From Limnohabitans sp. 2KL-51 (GTDB taxonomy: Bacteria > Pseudomonadota > Gammaproteobacteria > Burkholderiales > Burkholderiaceae_C), in the NCBI RefSeq assembly GCF_003063645.1, contig NZ_NESJ01000022.1, positions 1-64,000 on the forward strand: a DNA stretch of 64,000 nt, given 5' to 3'. Positions 3 through 62,873 of the stretch are shown here, piece by piece (positions within the stretch are counted from its first letter, which is position 1; each line of letters begins with the position of its first letter). The position numbers and the translations under genes are program-made. The notes beneath the pieces are model-generated. The model saw only the letters and a list, made by a program, of their open reading frames with translations, was not told the DNA's origin and searched no databases.

Positions 3-1100
3 CTGGTGCCCGCTGCGGCGCTGTCGTGGCACCGCGTCGAGCTGCCCGCAGGTCTGAACAAACAGGCCCAGCGCGTGCAAGCGGCCTTGCAAGGCGTGTT
101 GGAAGACCGCCTGCTCGACGACTCCGAACACATGCACCTGGCCTTGCAAGCCGACTGGGCCAACAACCCCCGCCCCTGGGTGGCTGCGTGCGACCGAGCC
201 TGGCTGAGCGCCCACCTGCAAGCCCTCGAACAAGCCGGCTTGACCGTGCACCGCATCGTGCCCGAGCTCTCACCGGGCACGCCCGACAGCCCGGTGCAGC
301 TCACGGCCTTGGGCGATGCCGACACCGGCTGGCTGTGGGTCAGCCACCCCGAACGCGGCGTCTGGGGCCAACCCTGGCCTGCCCTGCGCCCAGCCGGCTT
401 GGCGACCCACGAACGACTGGGGCTGTCCGAGTCCGAGCAGGCCACAGCCTCGCTGCAGGCCGAACCCGGTGCCGTGGCCTTGGCCACGGAACTGCTGGGC
501 TCTGGTGTGCGACTCATGCCCCCGGCCCAGCATTGGTTGACCGCCCTGGCCGGTGATTGGGACCTGGCCCAATTTGAGCTGCGCGCCAACGCCCGCAGCC
601 GCCAACTGAAAAACTGGCAACGCACCGCCAGCAGCCTGTGGTACAGCCCCACCTGGCGACCAGCACGCTGGGGCTTTTGGCTCTTGCTCGCCGCGCAATT
701 GGTGGGCCTGAACGCCTGGGCCTGGAAAACCCGCGCCGACTGGCAAGCTCAGCAAAGCAGCTGGGCCCAGGTGCTGCGCGAGACCTTCCCGAAAACCACC
801 TTGGTGGTCGATGCGCCGCTGCAAATGGGCCAACAAGTCGAGCGCCTGCGCCAAGGCTCGGGCCAGCTCGGTGCGGACGACCTCGAAGCCATGCTGGCCG
901 CGCTGGGCCAAGCCCTGCCGCCCGGGCTGGCCGCGCCGCGCCAATGGGCTTACCAAACGGGCCAGATGCGCCTGCAAGACTTTCAGCCCGATGCCGCCCA
1001 GCAGCAAGCCTTGACACAAAGCCTGAGCGCCTTGGGCTATGCCTGGCGCACTCAAGGCGACGGCTGGTTGATGACTGCCCAAGCGCAGGCCAAACCATGA
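3..1100 (+). CDS. gspL: Type II secretion protein GspL, 5' end outside window
   Basis: GspL is the inner-membrane assembly-platform protein that links the secretion ATPase GspE to GspM. The reading frame is open from the first bases of the window, so the true start lies upstream; a GTG at 6 is only the first in-frame start inside the window. About 365 residues are visible. A cytoplasmic actin-like part is followed by one membrane segment near residues 220-240 (WGFWLLLAAQLVGLNAW) and a periplasmic ferredoxin-like tail, as expected for the family. The stop codon overlaps the gspM start (ATGA at 1097-1100). Identification rests on this architecture plus the following gspM, N, D, E and F. Confidence 0.88.
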   Translation: MVPAAALSWHRVELPAGLNKQAQRVQAALQGVLEDRLLDDSEHMHLALQADWANNPRPWVAACDRAWLSAHLQALEQAGLTVHRIVPELSPGTPDSPVQLTALGDADTGWLWVSHPERGVWGQPWPALRPAGLATHERLGLSESEQATASLQAEPGAVALATELLGSGVRLMPPAQHWLTALAGDWDLAQFELRANARSRQLKNWQRTASSLWYSPTWRPARWGFWLLLAAQLVGLNAWAWKTRADWQAQQSSWAQVLRETFPKTTLVVDAPLQMGQQVERLRQGSGQLGADDLEAMLAALGQALPPGLAAPRQWAYQTGQMRLQDFQPDAAQQQALTQSLSALGYAWRTQGDGWLMTAQAQAKP

Positions 1101-1612
1101 GCCCAAACACCCTGACCGCTCAAATGCGCAGCGGCTGGCAAGCTGCTTGGACCCGGCGCAGCCAGAGAGAAAAACAGTTGCTCAGCATCGGCATCTGGGT
1201 GCTCGGCCTGGCCGCGCTGTGGATGCTGGCCCTGGCCCCGGCGCTGCGCACTTGGCAAGAGGCCCCGGCCCGCCAGGCCCTGCTCGACGCCCAAAGCCAG
1301 CGCATGCGCCAGCTGCAAGCGCAAGCCCAAAGCCTGCAAAAGCCTGTGACCATCTCCCGCGCCGATGCCGCCAAGTGGCTGGAGAAAAGCCTGACGGAAC
1401 TTGGCCCCAACGCGCGCATCAGCATACAGGGTGAAACCGCCACCCTGAGCCTGCAAGCCGCCCCGGCCGCTGCACTGGCCCGCTGGCTGAGCCAAGCGCG
1501 TGACAACGCCCAATCCTTGCCCACACAAGCCCAGCTGCAACACGCCAGCCCCCCCGGCCCCAACAGCTTGGATGTCACCTGGCGCGGCAGCCTGGTGCTG
1601 CGCCTGCCATGA
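1097..1612 (+). CDS. gspM: Type II secretion protein GspM
   Basis: A 171-residue bitopic inner-membrane protein that partners GspL in the secretion platform. It has a short basic cytoplasmic N terminus (RRSQREKQ), one membrane segment near residues 28-46 (LLSIGIWVLGLAALWMLAL), then a periplasmic coiled region rich in Gln and Ala and a compact C-terminal domain, which is the normal GspM layout. I chose the ATG at 1097 because it overlaps the gspL stop by 4 bases. A longer open frame extends upstream into gspL but has no homology value. It ends in another ATGA overlap with gspN. Confidence 0.88.
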   Translation: MSPNTLTAQMRSGWQAAWTRRSQREKQLLSIGIWVLGLAALWMLALAPALRTWQEAPARQALLDAQSQRMRQLQAQAQSLQKPVTISRADAAKWLEKSLTELGPNARISIQGETATLSLQAAPAAALARWLSQARDNAQSLPTQAQLQHASPPGPNSLDVTWRGSLVLRLP

Positions 1613-2442
1613 CATCCACCCAGACCATGAAAGCCCTGCGCCGCGCCAACGCAATCAGTCCGGTGCATGCGCCTTGGTCTCTTGCATGGCTCGGCGTGCT
1701 CTTGGGCCTGGTTCTGGCTCTGTTGGTGTGGGCCCCTGCACGCTGGCTGGCTTGGGGCGTGGCAGAGGCCAGTCAAGGCCAGGTGCAATGGCTCAACCCC
1801 CGAGGCACGGTGTGGCAAGGCTCGGCCCAACTGCTGCTCAGCGGCGGCCCGGGCAGCCGCCAGCCGCAAGCCCTGCCCGGCCGACTGCATTGGACCCTGT
1901 CACCTGCCTGGTCCGGCCTGCGCTTGGGTTGGCGGGCTGACTGCTGCATGACCCAAGCCGCCAGCGTGCAAGCCGCTCTGGGCTGGAACACCCTGCACCT
2001 GCAAGCCAGCGACCACCGCTCCAACTGGCCGGCCGCCCTGCTCACGGGCCTGGGCGCACCCTGGAACACCTTGCAGGCCGAAGGCCAGTTGCAGCTGCGC
2101 ACCGAAGCACTGCAACTGCACTGGGCCCAAGGCCGTCTGCAAATGCAAGGCCTGCTGGAGCTGAGCCTTCAAGGCATGTCCTCGCGCCTGAGCCCCGTCA
2201 AGCCCATGGGCAGCTACCGCATCGCCCTGACCGGCACGCCCGAAGGCACGCCCACACCCAGCTTGGCCCTGAGCACGCTGCAAGGCCCCTTGCTGCTGTC
2301 GGGCCAAGGCCAATGGGTGGGCCAGCGCCTGCGTTTTACCGGAGAAGCCAGTGCGGCCGAAGGCCAAGAGGCCGCGTTCGATAATTTGCTCAACATCCTG
2401 GGCCGCCGCCAAGGCGCGCGCAGCTTGCTGTCTTTGGGATAA
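1609..2442 (+). CDS. gspN: Type II secretion protein GspN
   Basis: A 277-residue inner-membrane accessory protein of the type II secretion system. GspN is not present in every type II locus, but it is usual in Burkholderiales between gspM and gspD, as here. One N-terminal membrane segment (about residues 23-45, LAWLGVLLGLVLALLVWAP) precedes a periplasmic beta-rich domain with the motif WLNPRGTVWQGSA, typical of the family. The start overlaps the gspM stop (ATGA). About 90 bases separate it from gspD, the largest gap among the gspL-gspE genes. Confidence 0.85.
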   Translation: MTSTQTMKALRRANAISPVHAPWSLAWLGVLLGLVLALLVWAPARWLAWGVAEASQGQVQWLNPRGTVWQGSAQLLLSGGPGSRQPQALPGRLHWTLSPAWSGLRLGWRADCCMTQAASVQAALGWNTLHLQASDHRSNWPAALLTGLGAPWNTLQAEGQLQLRTEALQLHWAQGRLQMQGLLELSLQGMSSRLSPVKPMGSYRIALTGTPEGTPTPSLALSTLQGPLLLSGQGQWVGQRLRFTGEASAAEGQEAAFDNLLNILGRRQGARSLLSLG

Positions 2443-2532
2443 ACCCGGTTTAATCTCAGTCCTCATGACCAGCCCCAACCTTCAACCCTTACTGCAACCA
2501 GCCTGCACCCCCTGTTTCAAGACCTGAACACC

Positions 2533-4716
2533 ATGAACGACTTAGCTCACATGCGCCCCTTGAACCGTGCCCGCTGGCCCCACAGCGCTTTGGCCACGGC
2601 CTGCCTCGCGACCCTAGGCTGGATCGCGCCCTTGGTGAATGCCCAAAGCACGGACAAACCCGCAGCCAACCCGGTGGTCAATCCAATTGCGAACCCGCCC
2701 GCCCTCAAGGCCCCGCGCCGTGAACCCGTCACGCTCAATTTTGTGAACGCCGAGATCGAGGCTGTGGCCCGCACCCTGGCCACTTTGTCGGGTGCGAACG
2801 TGGTGGTTGACCCGCGTGTGAAGGGCACGATGTCGCTGTCCAGCACCGTGCCCGTGCCTCCGGCACAGGCCCTGCGGCTGTTTGCTGCTCAGCTGCGCAC
2901 CCAAGGCTTTGCGCTGGTGGAGTCGGCCGGGCTCTACACCGTGGTGCCCGAGGCCGAAGCCAAGCTGCAAAGCAGTGCCGTGTCGGCCGGGGCCGTGCCG
3001 GCCGGGACCGGGCAAATCGTCACGCAGATCTTCAAACTCAACCACGAAAACGTGAACAACCTGGTGCCGGTGCTGCGCCCCCTGATCAGCCCCAACAACA
3101 CCATCAACGTCAACCCCGGCACCAACGCTCTGATCATCACCGACTACAGCGACAACCTACAGCGCCTGGGCCGCATCATCGCGGCGCTTGACGTGTCCAA
3201 CGCCACAGGCGTCGAGGTGCTGCGACTTCGCCACGCCATCGCGGGTGACCTGGCCCCCATGGTGCAGCGCCTGATCGAATCGGGCGCTGCCGCTGCCCCA
3301 GCCGCCCAAGGCCAATCGGACAACTCGTTTAAAACCACCGTCATCCCCGAGGTGCGCACCAACTCACTCATCGTGCGGGCGGCCAACCCGGCGCGTCTGG
3401 CGCTGGTGCGCAGTTTGGTCGACCAACTCGACCAGCCCAGCGCCACCGGCGCGGGCGCGGCCAGCGGCAACATCCATGTGGTGTATCTGAAAAATGCAGA
3501 TGCGACCAAACTGGCCGCTACGTTGCGCGCTGCCATCGCGGGCGAAGCGCGCAGTGGTGGGGTGACCAGCGGGCCAGGTACCAACCCAGCTGCAGCGAGT
3601 GCGGGTGCGGGTGCGGGTGCGACGGCGGCCAGCGCCAGCCCCTCGGCCCAGCCTTCCACCGGCGGCCAGATCCAGGCCGACCCAGCCACCAACGCGCTCA
3701 TCATCACCGCGCCCGAGCCGCAATACCGCCAGCTGCGCAGCGTGATCGACATGCTCGACCAGCGCCGCGCCCAGGTGTTTGTGGAGAGCCTGATCGCCGA
3801 GGTCAGCGCCGACAAGGCCGCCGAGTTTGGTGTGCAGTGGATGAGCGGCACCGGCACCAACGGAAGCCTTGTGGGATTGTTGGGCACCAATTTTGCAGTG
3901 GGTGGTACCAACTTGCTGACCCTGGCTGCAGGAGCCGCTTCGGGTAATTACACGGCGTCGACAGGCTTGAACGTGGCTGTTGGTGCACAACGCAACGGTG
4001 CCTTGGCCCTCGGTGCTTTGGCGCGGTTTTTACAGTCAAACGGCGATGCCAACGTGCTGTCCACGCCCAACTTGCTCACGCTGGACAATGAAGAAGCCAA
4101 GATCGTGATTGGCCAAAACGTGCCCTTTGTGACCGGCTCCTTCGCAGGAGCAGCGGTGGGCACGACCAACCCCTTCACCACCGTTGAGCGCAAAGATGTC
4201 GGCCTGACACTGCGCGTCAGACCGCAGATCAGTGAAAACGGCACGATCAAGATGCAGGTCTACCAAGAAGTCAGCAACGTCGACGCCAAATCCGTTGGCT
4301 CCAAAGATGGTCTCATCACCAACAAGCGCTCCATTGAAACCAACGTGCTGGTGAATGACGGCTCCATTGTCGTGCTGGGCGGATTGCTGCAAGACGACAC
4401 CAGCACCAGCCAGGAAAAAGTACCCGGCCTGGGCGACATCCCTTTGTTTGGCAATTTGTTCAAGTCAGAAGCCCGCAGCCGCAAAAAAACCAACCTCATG
4501 GTGTTCCTGCGGCCCGTGGTGGTGCGCGACGGTGCAGCCACAGAAGCCCTGTCGATGGGGCGTTATGAGCAAATGCGCCTGGACCAGCAGGGCTTCCAGC
4601 CTGCCGCAACGGGCCCCTTGCCGGTCAATGGTTCTGCCGTGCTGCCGTCAATGGGGGCGGGCGGTGCGACTCCCCCTGCACCCCATCCCGCAGCAACCCA
4701 GTCCCGCCAGCCCTGA
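2533..4716 (+). CDS. gspD: Type II secretion secretin GspD
   Basis: A 727-residue outer-membrane secretin that forms the multimeric exit channel. Residues 1-38 form a signal peptide ending in VNAQ. The N0 domain (VTLNFVNAEIEAVARTLATLSGANVVVDPRVKG, given here only as a landmark by its first residues VTLNFVNAEIEAV) is followed by N1-N3 repeats. N3 carries an Ala/Gly/Ser linker (positions 3590-3650 of the DNA). The C-terminal secretin domain has the VPGLGDIPLFGNLFK and NLMVFLRPVVV motifs. An ATG at 2551 is an alternative start that would shorten the leader by six residues. No pilotin-binding S-domain is obvious; the tail is Pro/Ala-rich. Confidence 0.93.
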   Translation: MNDLAHMRPLNRARWPHSALATACLATLGWIAPLVNAQSTDKPAANPVVNPIANPPALKAPRREPVTLNFVNAEIEAVARTLATLSGANVVVDPRVKGTMSLSSTVPVPPAQALRLFAAQLRTQGFALVESAGLYTVVPEAEAKLQSSAVSAGAVPAGTGQIVTQIFKLNHENVNNLVPVLRPLISPNNTINVNPGTNALIITDYSDNLQRLGRIIAALDVSNATGVEVLRLRHAIAGDLAPMVQRLIESGAAAAPAAQGQSDNSFKTTVIPEVRTNSLIVRAANPARLALVRSLVDQLDQPSATGAGAASGNIHVVYLKNADATKLAATLRAAIAGEARSGGVTSGPGTNPAAASAGAGAGATAASASPSAQPSTGGQIQADPATNALIITAPEPQYRQLRSVIDMLDQRRAQVFVESLIAEVSADKAAEFGVQWMSGTGTNGSLVGLLGTNFAVGGTNLLTLAAGAASGNYTASTGLNVAVGAQRNGALALGALARFLQSNGDANVLSTPNLLTLDNEEAKIVIGQNVPFVTGSFAGAAVGTTNPFTTVERKDVGLTLRVRPQISENGTIKMQVYQEVSNVDAKSVGSKDGLITNKRSIETNVLVNDGSIVVLGGLLQDDTSTSQEKVPGLGDIPLFGNLFKSEARSRKKTNLMVFLRPVVVRDGAATEALSMGRYEQMRLDQQGFQPAATGPLPVNGSAVLPSMGAGGATPPAPHPAATQSRQP

Positions 4717-10027: not shown

Positions 10028-10221
10028 TATTGATCTGGTCCCTTGGAGTTTTGAACAACATGCAAGGGCTCGCTTTTTTGCAGGAGCCCACCCCTGTGGG
10101 CGATGGGCGTCGAACACGCCCCGAAAACCTTCGCCCACAGGGTGGGCTCCTACAAAGACAACCATATCGGCATGCTGGGCACCAACACGGGCCATTCAAA
10201 CTTCATCGGACCGGTTCTATA
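10028..10221 (+). repeat. Composite REP element, copy A (194 bp)
   Basis: This is the cleanest copy of the dispersed element. Its ends are imperfect inverted repeats: TATTGATCTGGTCC at 10028-10041 and GGACCGGTTCTATA at 10208-10221. Inside, a forward REP core (10081-10108) and an inverted core (10131-10153) can fold into a long hairpin. Left flank (TTGAACAACATGCAAGG) and right flank (ACAAAGACAACCATATCGGC, then GGGCCATTCAAAC) are shared with copies at 18.5 and 62.7 kb. It lies in the 262-bp gap between the DUF3299 gene and the FtsX-type permease, both on the minus strand. Confidence 0.85.
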
Positions 10222-18309: not shown

Positions 18310-18479
18310 GATGAGTTGCCTAATTTTTCGATCGCTTGAAGCACTTGTCTGACTTGATAAGGCTTTGCCTTGCCTTTGGCGTTCTGGATGTTAACGCGTG
18401 GATCGCCTGGCCAAGGCGTCTTGATAACAAGGGTGCCATGACTGACAAAACGCGTCAACAAAGACAAAGACCTATTCAT
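18306..18479 (-). CDS. 57-residue ORF coupled to the HicB-like gene, unrecognised
   Basis: A short open frame starting MNRSLSLLTRFVSHGTLVIK and ending QVLQAIEKLGNSS. Its TGA overlaps the HicB-like ATG, so the two are translationally coupled, the usual arrangement of a toxin ahead of its antitoxin. It lacks the GSHH motif of HicA and I cannot assign it. The ATG lies inside the terminal repeat of the composite REP element, and an in-frame stop lies 15-18 bases upstream within that element. The ORF may therefore be the remnant of a longer gene whose 5' end was replaced. Confidence 0.45.
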   Translation of the reverse strand: MNRSLSLLTRFVSHGTLVIKTPWPGDPRVNIQNAKGKAKPYQVRQVLQAIEKLGNSS

Positions 18480-18706
18480 CCGGCCCGATGAAGTTTATAT
18501 GGCCCTTTTGGGTGCCGAGCATGCCGATATTGTTGTCTTTGTAAGAGCCCACCCTGTGGGCGATGGTTTGCAGGGCGTGTTCCACACCCATCGCCCACAG
18601 GGGTGGGCTCCCACAAAAAAGTCCATCGCCCACAGGGGTGGGCTCCTACAAAAAATGATCCCTTGCCTGTTGTTCAAGGCTTCAAGAATCCGGATCAATA
18701 GGGGTC
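18469..18706 (-). repeat. Composite REP element, copy B (about 236 bp, three REP cores)
   Basis: This copy is in reverse orientation to copy A. Its ends pair as GACCTATTCATCCGG (18469-18483) and CCGGATCAATAGGGGTC (18690-18706). It carries one forward core (18541-18566) and two inverted cores (18588-18613 and 18623-18649), one more than copies A and C, which accounts for most of its extra length. Conserved flanks match copy A (GCATGCCGATATTGTTGTCT on this strand). It fills almost the whole 252-base gap between the 57-residue ORF and the end of the E1 dehydrogenase gene. Confidence 0.85.
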
Positions 18707-61232: not shown

Positions 61233-62699
61233 ATGAAATCCAAGGGCTGGAACATGCGGGTCTTCAAGCGCGAGCAACGCTCGCTGTTTGGCGAAATCCT
61301 CGACTGGATGCTGACACCGCTGCTCTTGCTGTGGCCCATCAGTCTGGCGCTGACCTGGTTGGTGGCGCAAGGACTGGCCAACAAACCCTTCGACCGGGCC
61401 CTGGTCTACAACGTGCAAGCCCTGGCCCAACAGGTCCGCATGGGGCCCGATCAACAGGTGCAGTTCAGCCTGCCGCAACCGGCCAGCGAACTGCTGCGCG
61501 CCGACGAAACCGATCTGGTGTACTACCAAGTGCTGGGCGGCCGGGGCGAGCATCTGAGCGGCGACCGCGACCTGCCATTGCCCAAACCCAACCAGGTCAA
61601 AGGCACCAGTTACCAAGTGCACATTCGGGACGACGAAATCCGGGGTCTGGAAGTGCGCGTGGCCTACACCTGGATCCGGCTGGACGCCAAGGGCACACCA
61701 CCGGCCCTGGTGCAAGTGGCCGAGACACTCGAAAAACGCTCGGTGCTGGCCGCTGAAATCATCAAAGGCGTGATGTTGCCCCAGTTTGCCTTGCTGCCGC
61801 TGGCGGTGCTTTTGGTCTGGCTTGCCCTGGTGCACGGCATCAAGCCCCTGAAACAACTGGAAGAACGCATCCGTGAGCGCAAACCAGACGATCTGAGCCC
61901 ACTGGACGACAAAGCGGTGCCGATGGAGGTGGCCCCTCTGGTGGTCTCTGTCAACGATTTGCTGGAGCGCCTAAAAGACTCGATCTCCACGCAAAAACGT
62001 TTTTTGGCCGATGCCGCTCACCAACTGAAAACCCCCTTGGCTGGTTTGCGCATGCAGGCCGATTTGGCGCAACGCTCGGGTTCTAGCGAAGAAGACCTGA
62101 AAAAGTCACTGCAGCAAATTGGGCGCGCCAGCGTGCAGGCCACGCGCACGGTAAATCAATTGTTGTCGCTGGCCCGGGCAGAGGGCGGCGTCACCCACTT
62201 GCCCTTGCAATCGTGCGACATGGCGGCCCTGAGCAGCGATGTGCTGCAAGACTGTCTGGCAAGCGCCATGGACAAGGGGCTGGACCTGGGCTACGAAGGG
62301 GTTGCAGTGGGGACACCGGGCGCACAGGTGCAGGGCAATCCCACGCTGCTCAAGGAGATGGTGCGCAACCTGGTGGAAAACGCCATCCACTACACGCCCA
62401 GCACACCCGAGCGTCAAGGCGTGATCACGGTGCGGGTGTTGGTCGACCCCTACAGCAAGGCGTTGGTAATGCAGGTCGAAGACAACGGGCCTGGCATACC
62501 CTTGCCCGAGCGCGATTTGGTGTTCCAGCCCTTTTACCGCGCCCTGGGCACCAACGTGGACGGCTCCGGTCTGGGTCTGCCCATCGTTAAGGGCATTGCC
62601 CAGCAGCACGGTGCAACGGTCAGCATCGACATGGCCCACCCGGGCCAAACCTTGCCCGGTGCGTGCTTTACTTTGCGCTTTATTGATCCGGCCCTGTAA
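61233..62699 (+). CDS. Sensor histidine kinase, partner of the upstream regulator
   Basis: A 488-residue membrane kinase of the TctE/QseC type. Two membrane helices (WMLTPLLLLWPISLALTWLV and LLPLAVLLVWLALVHGI) flank a periplasmic sensor domain of about 130 residues. HisKA is RFLADAAHQLKTPLAGLRMQ, the N-box is MVRNLVENAIHYTP, G1 is DNGPGIP and G2 is GSGLGLPIVKGIA. The last codons, FIDPAL and the stop, lie inside the terminal repeat of composite REP copy C, so the protein end has been written by that element. Confidence 0.9.
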   Translation: MKSKGWNMRVFKREQRSLFGEILDWMLTPLLLLWPISLALTWLVAQGLANKPFDRALVYNVQALAQQVRMGPDQQVQFSLPQPASELLRADETDLVYYQVLGGRGEHLSGDRDLPLPKPNQVKGTSYQVHIRDDEIRGLEVRVAYTWIRLDAKGTPPALVQVAETLEKRSVLAAEIIKGVMLPQFALLPLAVLLVWLALVHGIKPLKQLEERIRERKPDDLSPLDDKAVPMEVAPLVVSVNDLLERLKDSISTQKRFLADAAHQLKTPLAGLRMQADLAQRSGSSEEDLKKSLQQIGRASVQATRTVNQLLSLARAEGGVTHLPLQSCDMAALSSDVLQDCLASAMDKGLDLGYEGVAVGTPGAQVQGNPTLLKEMVRNLVENAIHYTPSTPERQGVITVRVLVDPYSKALVMQVEDNGPGIPLPERDLVFQPFYRALGTNVDGSGLGLPIVKGIAQQHGATVSIDMAHPGQTLPGACFTLRFIDPAL

Positions 62700-62873
62700 A
62701 GTCTTGAACAACATTCAATGGATGGTTTTTTGTAGGAGCCAACCCCTGCGGGTGATGGCTTGCTTTGGCGGTTTGGATGCAATCGCCCACGGGGTGGGCT
62801 CCCACAAAGACAAAAAAATCTGCATGGCCAACAAAAACATGGGCCATTCAACCATCTACGGGCGGGGTCAATA
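62681..62873 (+). repeat. Composite REP element, copy C (193 bp)
   Basis: Ends pair as TATTGATCCGGCCC (62681-62694) and GGGCGGGGTCAATA (62860-62873). A forward REP core lies at 62732-62759 (GTAGGAGCCAACCCCTGCGG start, one compensated change) and an inverted core at 62782-62804. The right flank ACAAAGACAAAAAAATCTGC and GGGCCATTCAACC matches copies A and B. The left end covers the stop codon of the sensor kinase gene. Confidence 0.85.

What the first reader, a model, noticed from the sequence alone, without database searches (positions are those of the whole stretch)
10028..10221. Dispersed composite element of about 194 bp with terminal inverted repeats around a REP hairpin
Seen directly: loci at 10028-10221, 18469-18706 and 62681-62873 share imperfect terminal inverted repeats (TATTGATCYGG type), a left flank (TTGAACAACA), a right flank (ACAAAGACAA, ATATCGGCATGC, GGGCCAT) and an inner inverted pair of GTAG-headed palindromes with a CCCAC/GTGGG stem. 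Two copies are 193 and 194 bp; the third is about 40 bp longer and has one extra core. Known: paired REPs with a GTAG head (REPINs) are moved in trans by Y1 RAYT transposases. Inference: here the REPIN lies in a longer conserved frame with its own ends, so this may be a MITE-like or structured-RNA element not covered by the usual REPIN definition. No transposase is in the window.
Basis: partly seen in the sequence, partly recalled or inferred. Interest (0 to 1): 0.8.

Follow-up and report, generated by a model that had tools for sequence, protein, structure and literature searches.

The report
REPIN riding inside an IS630-type mini-transposon
The repeated 194-base element is a small, gene-less jumping element whose ends match a cut-and-paste transposon (IS630 family), and it carries in its middle a second kind of mobile repeat (a REPIN, the partner of a different transposase); the same end-frame carries at least four different REPIN types in related freshwater bacteria.

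Summary
In the host (a Limnohabitans relative) 13 copies have both ends at the cut-off used; the 22-base end occurs 28 times, its reversed control 0 times. The frame is an IS630-family MITE: relative G036 holds three 99.8% identical 1117-bp IS630 elements with matching ends and three 98-99% identical 149-bp MITEs. Window copy 3 has clean empty sites in four relatives. The middle is a type A REPIN; two relatives have RAYT genes between such REPs. The same frame encloses REPIN types A-D, each with a RAYT in the genus, and a palindrome pair E. Plain MITEs occur in other genera. The searches found no IS630 transposase and no type A RAYT in the host. TA duplication is only partly shown (3 of 13 clean empty sites have TA). 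A structured-RNA reading is not supported. Known parts, new recurrent combination; a 2013 paper noted REP dimers inside palindromes without naming a transposase.

The parts
10028..10221 (+). Copy 1 of the composite element, TA to TA, 194 bp
10028..10049 (+). Copy 1 left IS630-type terminal inverted repeat
10080..10153 (+). Copy 1 type A REPIN (two inverted REPs; head reads GCAG here)
10200..10221 (-). Copy 1 right terminal inverted repeat
18473..18700 (-). Copy 2 of the composite element, 228 bp, with one extra REP; an element follows the same left flank in three relatives (L114, L116, L119) with a single REPIN
18541..18614 (-). Copy 2 type A REPIN
18623..18652 (-). Copy 2 extra REP
62681..62873 (+). 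Copy 3 of the composite element, 193 bp; clean empty sites in four relatives (L237-L240)
62732..62805 (+). Copy 3 REPIN, variant loop subfamily

Best explanation
The 194-bp element is a non-autonomous IS630-family MITE. Its 22-28 bp terminal inverted repeats are the ends recognised by an IS630-type DDE transposase, which (inferred from the family) cuts the element out and pastes it into a TA, mostly YTAR, duplicating TA. Its cargo is a type A REPIN, itself (inferred from the family) a substrate of a Y1/HUH RAYT transposase. The REPIN therefore spreads in two ways: alone, by its RAYT, and as passenger of the MITE. In the present host neither engine was found, so the window copies look like relics of earlier activity. 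The same frame took up REPINs of at least four RAYT systems in this genus. Shown by sequence: ends shared with an open IS630 element, empty sites, RAYTs beside the same REPs in relatives, several REPIN types in one frame. Inferred: that this transposase moved these copies, and how the REPINs entered the frame.
For: G036 IS630: 3 copies of 1117 bp, 99.8% identical, ends TATAGATTCGGCCCATTGAAGTCTTGAA and TATTGCTCCGGCCCTTTGAAGTTTAA, different flanks; 345 aa, NF033545 IS630 248 bits, PF13358 124 bits. The type A left end matches the IS left end at 25 of 28 bases. Three further genera hold 1108-1127 bp units with the same ends (L279-L281) that match the G036 protein over its full length at 71-83% identity. 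Flanks of 79 TIR pairs: C/T before TA in 67 of 79, G/A after TA in 73 of 79. Empty sites: 13 of 20 fetched relatives align cleanly across the junction, 4 of them for window copy 3 and 4 for an IS copy inside an N6-methylase frame. Type A RAYTs L252 and L257 sit between type A REPs; the L252 product scores 138.6 bits for the RAYT model. MITE-borne and solo REPINs are separated on a tree of 47 own-genome cores: 6 changes versus a shuffled mean of 16.0, 0 of 500 shuffles as low.
Against: No transposase of either matching kind was found in the own genome, so the pairing is by ends and relatives, not by cohabitation here; the same holds for PF13358 in the six other element-bearing genomes searched besides G036. 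Of the 13 clean empty sites only 3 have TA at the junction (L228, L234, L237); 10 have T plus another base, so TA duplication rests on those 3, on the TA at both ends, and on the nested copy L186, whose base after TA differs from the consensus. 7 of 20 fetched empty-site candidates are diverged or gapped at the junction. The type A right end matches the IS ends at only 20 and 22 of 28 bases. Window copy 1 was not among the eight sites searched for empty alleles.
Confidence: 0.86

Rival explanations
1. The whole 194-bp unit is an extended REPIN moved only by the Y1 RAYT; the outer repeats are long RAYT recognition flanks.
For: RAYTs with cognate REPs exist in the genus; the published 'TIRYT' class shows that some Y1 transposases are flanked by long TIRs (abstract and passages of PMC3733652).
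Against: The outer ends match IS630 elements, are shared by elements with four different REPIN types, occur without a REP pair in G112 and G121, and many REPIN copies lack them.
Confidence: 0.05
2. On the origin: REPINs inserted repeatedly into pre-existing plain MITEs, perhaps because palindromic MITE DNA is a preferred RAYT target; the composites then multiplied by IS630. (Compatible with the best explanation.)
For: Plain 94-96 bp MITEs exist in other genera; REPIN-bearing ones in this genus are often 163-197 bp, about one REPIN longer; REP dimers lie in palindromic frames in Anabaena (PMC3733652 section 7).
Against: I saw no REPIN-less MITE with the same inner arms in the genus loci fetched; G036's short copies keep a type A REP hairpin and look like a deletion.
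Confidence: 0.4
3. A structured RNA or cis-regulatory element kept by selection, with mobility incidental.
For: Strong predicted folding of single copies; copy 3 alters the last codons of a sensor-kinase-like gene.
Against: No Rfam match, almost no covariation, unrelated interiors in the same frame, empty sites in relatives.
Confidence: 0.05
4. The frame similarity is a chance effect and only the REP core is repeated.
For: Many copies are REPIN-only and several have one arm.
Against: 28 versus 0 in the reversed-pattern control; 13 own copies with both ends.
Confidence: 0.01

Closest known systems
IS630-derived MITEs: RUP of Streptococcus pneumoniae (IS630-Spn1) and Correia/NEMIS of Neisseria
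   Same: Short gene-less units; RUP has TIRs like those of IS630-Spn1 and TA targets (passages of PMC2229807; both named as IS630-derived in a passage of PMC2817692).
   Different: Different species and TIR; no REP pair is mentioned for RUP in the passages I saw.
REPINs and RAYTs (Bertels and Rainey 2011, PMC3116915; Nunvar 2010, PMC2817692)
   Same: Inverted REP pair with GTAG head, dispersed copies, RAYT flanked by the same REPs in relatives.
   Different: Here the REPIN also sits inside a DDE-type frame and mostly descends with it; no cognate RAYT was found in the host. Passages only were read.
REP dimers inside palindromes in Anabaena variabilis, T. roseum and H. neapolitanus (Di Nocera 2013, PMC3733652; section 7 read whole)
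   Same: Many GTAG-15 dimers lie within palindromes beginning TATAGGA and ending TCCTATA; target palindromes without REP were not found in A. variabilis.
   Different: That section treats them as REP targets and names no transposase; here the frame has an IS630 partner, empty sites and several REPIN types.
MITEPsy1 of Pseudomonas syringae (PMC3189936)
   Same: Small MITE with IS-like ends and CTAG/YTAA targets (passages).
   Different: 100 bp, 4-nt duplication, attributed to ISPsy2; no REPIN cargo in the passages seen.

Membership tests
IS630-family MITE | Terminal inverted repeats shared with an autonomous IS630 element | tested here: met
   25/28 (type A left) and 22/28 (type A right) against the better-matching IS end; three IS copies in G036; same ends around IS630 frames in L279-L281
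IS630-family MITE | Target TA, duplicated on insertion | tested here: inconclusive
   TA at both ends and YTAR flanks; 3 of 13 clean empty sites show a single TA, 10 show T plus another base; nested copy L186 fits apart from one base
IS630-family MITE | Short, no transposase gene, dispersed copies | tested here: met
   193-228 bp in the window, 13 two-ended copies in the own genome
IS630-family MITE | Mobilised in trans by the IS630 transposase | not testable with these tools
   needs a transposition assay
REPIN | Inverted pair of REPs with GTAG-type head, also as solo dispersed copies | tested here: met
REPIN | Cognate RAYT flanked by the same REPs, in the genus | tested here: met
   type A: L252, L257; B: L246, L247, L249, L265; C: L253, L258, L263; D: L248, L251 (REP positions for eight loci); NF047646 137-178 bits for the four tested, one per type
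REPIN | Cognate RAYT in the same genome | tested here: not met
   own genome: one IS200 TnpA and one 254-aa Y1 protein (79 bits against cut-off 80 for NF047646) flanked by other repeats
Structured RNA family | Match to an Rfam family, or covariation of a fold | tested here: not met

The most novel reading that the evidence does not exclude
IS630-type MITEs and RAYT/REPIN systems form a recurrent two-transposase partnership in Burkholderiales: REPINs of unrelated RAYTs repeatedly become the core of the same MITE frame, because the frame and the hairpin help each other (dispersal for the REPIN, and perhaps a compact, gene-neutral core for the MITE). The palindromic frames noted around REP dimers in Anabaena would then be the same phenomenon in cyanobacteria.
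Probability: 0.3. Interest if true: 0.8.

Novelty: new variant of a known kind. Interest (0 to 1): 0.6.

Why it matters
REPINs are generally held to depend on their own RAYT (recalled; passages point that way). Here they also travel in a DDE transposon's vehicle, which would explain REPIN copies in a genome where no cognate RAYT was found and gives a route of REPIN dispersal that does not need RAYT. The recurrence with several REPIN types makes a testable case of cooperation or parasitism between two unrelated transposition systems, and offers a reading for the published REP-in-palindrome frames.

Tried and rejected
Looked for an autonomous element as widely spaced TIR pairs in five loci (L173-L177): these are separate neighbouring MITEs, or a REPIN array beside a gene. 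Considered IS21-type ends because of tandem TIR motifs in L175 and L071; dropped when the IS630 copies were found. Plasmid collection, distant mode, with the G036 element: no match. Rfam: no match. Inner-arm homology between types: of 36 pairs among nine arms only two reached 10 or fewer of 500 shuffles (A-left/B1 and B1/B2, both T-rich at the REP side), so no clear common inner arm; a resemblance by eye between the type A right arm and a type E arm did not pass that mark. My note that copy 3 fell in a stop codon was wrong: by reading frame it falls within the last codons.

Sampling limits: of the 79 TIR pairs some overlap or share an end, many loci were fetched with a type A query, and types were called by short motifs with one mismatch allowed, so some labels are soft (six rows carry two labels). 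Among the 20 loci that I picked from the TIR-pattern list (L173-L192) all 26 listed pairs, overlaps included, carry a REP motif; L174 and L183 gave no pair. The single pair of 79 without a motif is L169:1902-2044. The palindrome pairs in other genera are called REP-like by eye only, and no RAYT was sought for them. In one search the printed join for L047 used a wrong right end; it was not searched.

Full report
Host. The window lies in contig 15 of a 4.59-Mb genome in 76 contigs. A pattern scan of named genomes with the right arm hit two records, Limnohabitans sp. DM1 and a Burkholderiales MAG, so the host is taken as a Limnohabitans relative; the genome itself is unnamed.

Observation. The three loci are there and share the frame. 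blastn of copy 1 gives 87 matches in the own genome; they fall into two classes, those with arms and those limited to about positions 48-134, the REPIN. The 14-base end occurs 63 times against 7 for the reversed pattern, the 22-base end 28 against 0, and the REP head 219 against 24. Of the 79 TIR pairs found in all loci then held, 13 are own-genome copies; own copies with more worn ends, such as L012 and L021, fall outside that cut-off.

Ends. The alignment of 18 copies gives CnTATTGATCCGGCCCCTTGAAGTCTTGAACAACA... and ...GGGCCATTCAAACTTCATCGGGCCGGATCAATAG. Each end is an inverted repeat of 22-28 bp. Of 79 TIR pairs the base before TA is C or T in 67 and the base after TA is G or A in 73.

One frame, many interiors. 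A genus search with the end pattern at <=2 mismatches is positive in 36 of 90 genomes, with 242 sites in G003 and 172 in G008; the reversed control gave one site in all 90 together. Reading loci from it and shows the same ends around different REP pairs: type A (GTAGGAGCCCACCCC, the window), B (GTGGGAGCGGCGCCCTCG), C (GTAGGTCGGCACTCG and similar), D (GTGGGAGCTAGCCCTGC) and E (GTCATCCCGGGC). 78 of 79 TIR pairs carry one of these motifs; the sample is partly biased by type A queries, some pairs overlap, and the motifs are short. In a draw of 200 genomes of the family 23 were positive, 2 of them in the host's genus (the host and G002) and 21 outside. Of 14 short TIR pairs fetched there, 4 show no REP pair by eye (L266-L268, which have a 7-bp inverted repeat, and L278), 8 have a palindrome pair by eye (L269-L271, L274-L277, L283), and 2 are 467-476 bp with mixed content (L272, L273).

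The DDE engine. PF13358 was searched in eight genomes and found in one, G036, with four matches. Three are copies of a 1117-bp element, 99.8% identical, each bounded by TATAGATTCGGCCC... and ...GGGCCGGAGCAATA, with different flanks. The 345-aa product scores 248 bits for the IS630 equivalog and has DDE_3 and HTH domains. G036 also has three 149-bp MITEs, 98-99% identical, with a shortened REP hairpin. A protein search over 90 genus genomes found matches in 7: full-length in G036 and G082; partial in G071, G081, G016, G072 and G058, with stops inside matches in G071, G016, G072 and G058 and pieces at contig ends in G081. The own genome has none. L279, L280 and L281, from three other genera, are 1108-1127 bp units with the same ends and match the G036 protein over 345 residues at 71%, 71% and 83% identity.

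Empty sites. Eight joined flank pairs were searched in 90 genomes; 20 of the listed places were fetched and aligned. Clean across the junction: 4 for the IS copy in the N6-methylase frame (PF02384, 69 bits; hsdM model under its cut-off), 2 and 2 for two G036 MITEs, 1 for own L022 (2-base gap nearby), and 4 for window copy 3. Not clean: own L038 (2), L014 (4), L044 (1). Of the 13 clean ones 3 carry TA at the junction, the other 10 T plus another base. Window copy 2 has an element after the same left flank in G003, G008 and G057 (L114, L119, L116; 135/150, 130/146 and 131/150 identities); the right flank is matched in L114 and L119, not in L116. Copy 1 was not tested for an empty site.

The Y1 engine. 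PF01797 is found in 85 of 90 genus genomes; judged by open-frame length most have a long class (about 230-260 aa), which the own genome has too (L050). I fetched 20 further loci, picked mainly for shorter frames. REP matches of 20 or more (of 27-29) are type A in L252 and L257, B in L246, L247, L249 and L265, C in L253, L258 and L263, D in L248 and L251; the other nine (L250, L254-L256, L259-L262, L264) score 9-16 with all four, as does the control L050. L250, the G036 locus, is a broken relative of the long class. The four tested products, one per type, score 137-178 bits for the REP-associated tyrosine transposase model, cut-off 80. The own L050 product scores 79, and its flanking repeats are AATTGGGGTCAGATCC. 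So these searches show no RAYT with type A REPs in the own genome.

Unit of spread. 47 REPIN cores from the 40 own-genome places fetched labelled MITE-borne by arm similarity (cut-off 20), fall on a tree with 6 label changes, against a shuffled mean of 16.0 and 0 of 500 shuffles as low; many forks are unresolved, and shuffles show only that the label is clustered. MITE-borne REPINs thus mostly descend with their frame.

RNA reading. No Rfam match. The consensus fold is essentially the REPIN hairpin; the covariation term is -0.39 of -49.27.

Context. Copy 1 lies between two minus-strand open frames, copy 2 beside an AceE/AKGDH-type dehydrogenase gene, copy 3 at the 3' end of a sensor-kinase-like gene whose last codons it changes (the codon reading is mine).

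Literature. Limnohabitans with REP or MITE terms gave 0 papers; 'REPINs' with 'IS630' gave 1, whose passages concern MITEPsy1; RAYT with MITE spelled out gave 1, PMC3733652. PMC3733652 section 7 (read whole) reports REP dimers within palindromes in three species as a side note. In these searches and (20 of 264 listed; 12 of 16 listed) I saw no paper that names an IS630 MITE with REPIN cargo; the library holds only open-licence papers.

Verdict. An IS630-family MITE with REPIN cargo: both parts are known kinds; the recurrent combination is not described in what these searches showed me.

Noticed in passing
own genome contig ends L028, L029, L034 (C22 end, C13 start, C67 end): The same roughly 100-bp sequence abuts three different type A REPs at one fixed position (...CCATACC|AGGAGCCCACC): it looks like an insertion sequence with a fixed site inside REPs.
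   Followed up: partly
L104 (G036) and L014 (own): Elements sit at the same place between matching flanks (127/144 and 132/149 identities) but have different centres (149 versus 193 bp), while fetched relatives L241, L242, L244 and L245 lack them: gene conversion or parallel insertion.
   Followed up: partly
L035 (own C29:9202-9969): Tandem array of about eight type A REPINs with a period of about 92 bp.
   Followed up: no
L174 (G015:C5), 615-3591: A TIR, a tandem array of type B REPINs, an unrelated gene and a REPIN plus TIR span 3 kb.
   Followed up: no
L282 (G104:C1): A TIR pair 966 bp apart encloses frames that look by eye like an IS5-type transposase; no match to the IS630 protein.
   Followed up: partly
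L050 (own C76): A 254-aa Y1/RAYT-like gene flanked by AATTGGGGTCAGATCC repeats; its size class occurs in most genus genomes.
   Followed up: partly
L186 (G008:C2), 210-385: A type D element is nested in the REP head of a type C element (by eye).
   Followed up: partly
window 62676-62699: Copy 3 replaces the last codons of a sensor-kinase-like gene (own ending RFIDPAL, relative L237 ending RFRMT, by reading frame).
   Followed up: partly
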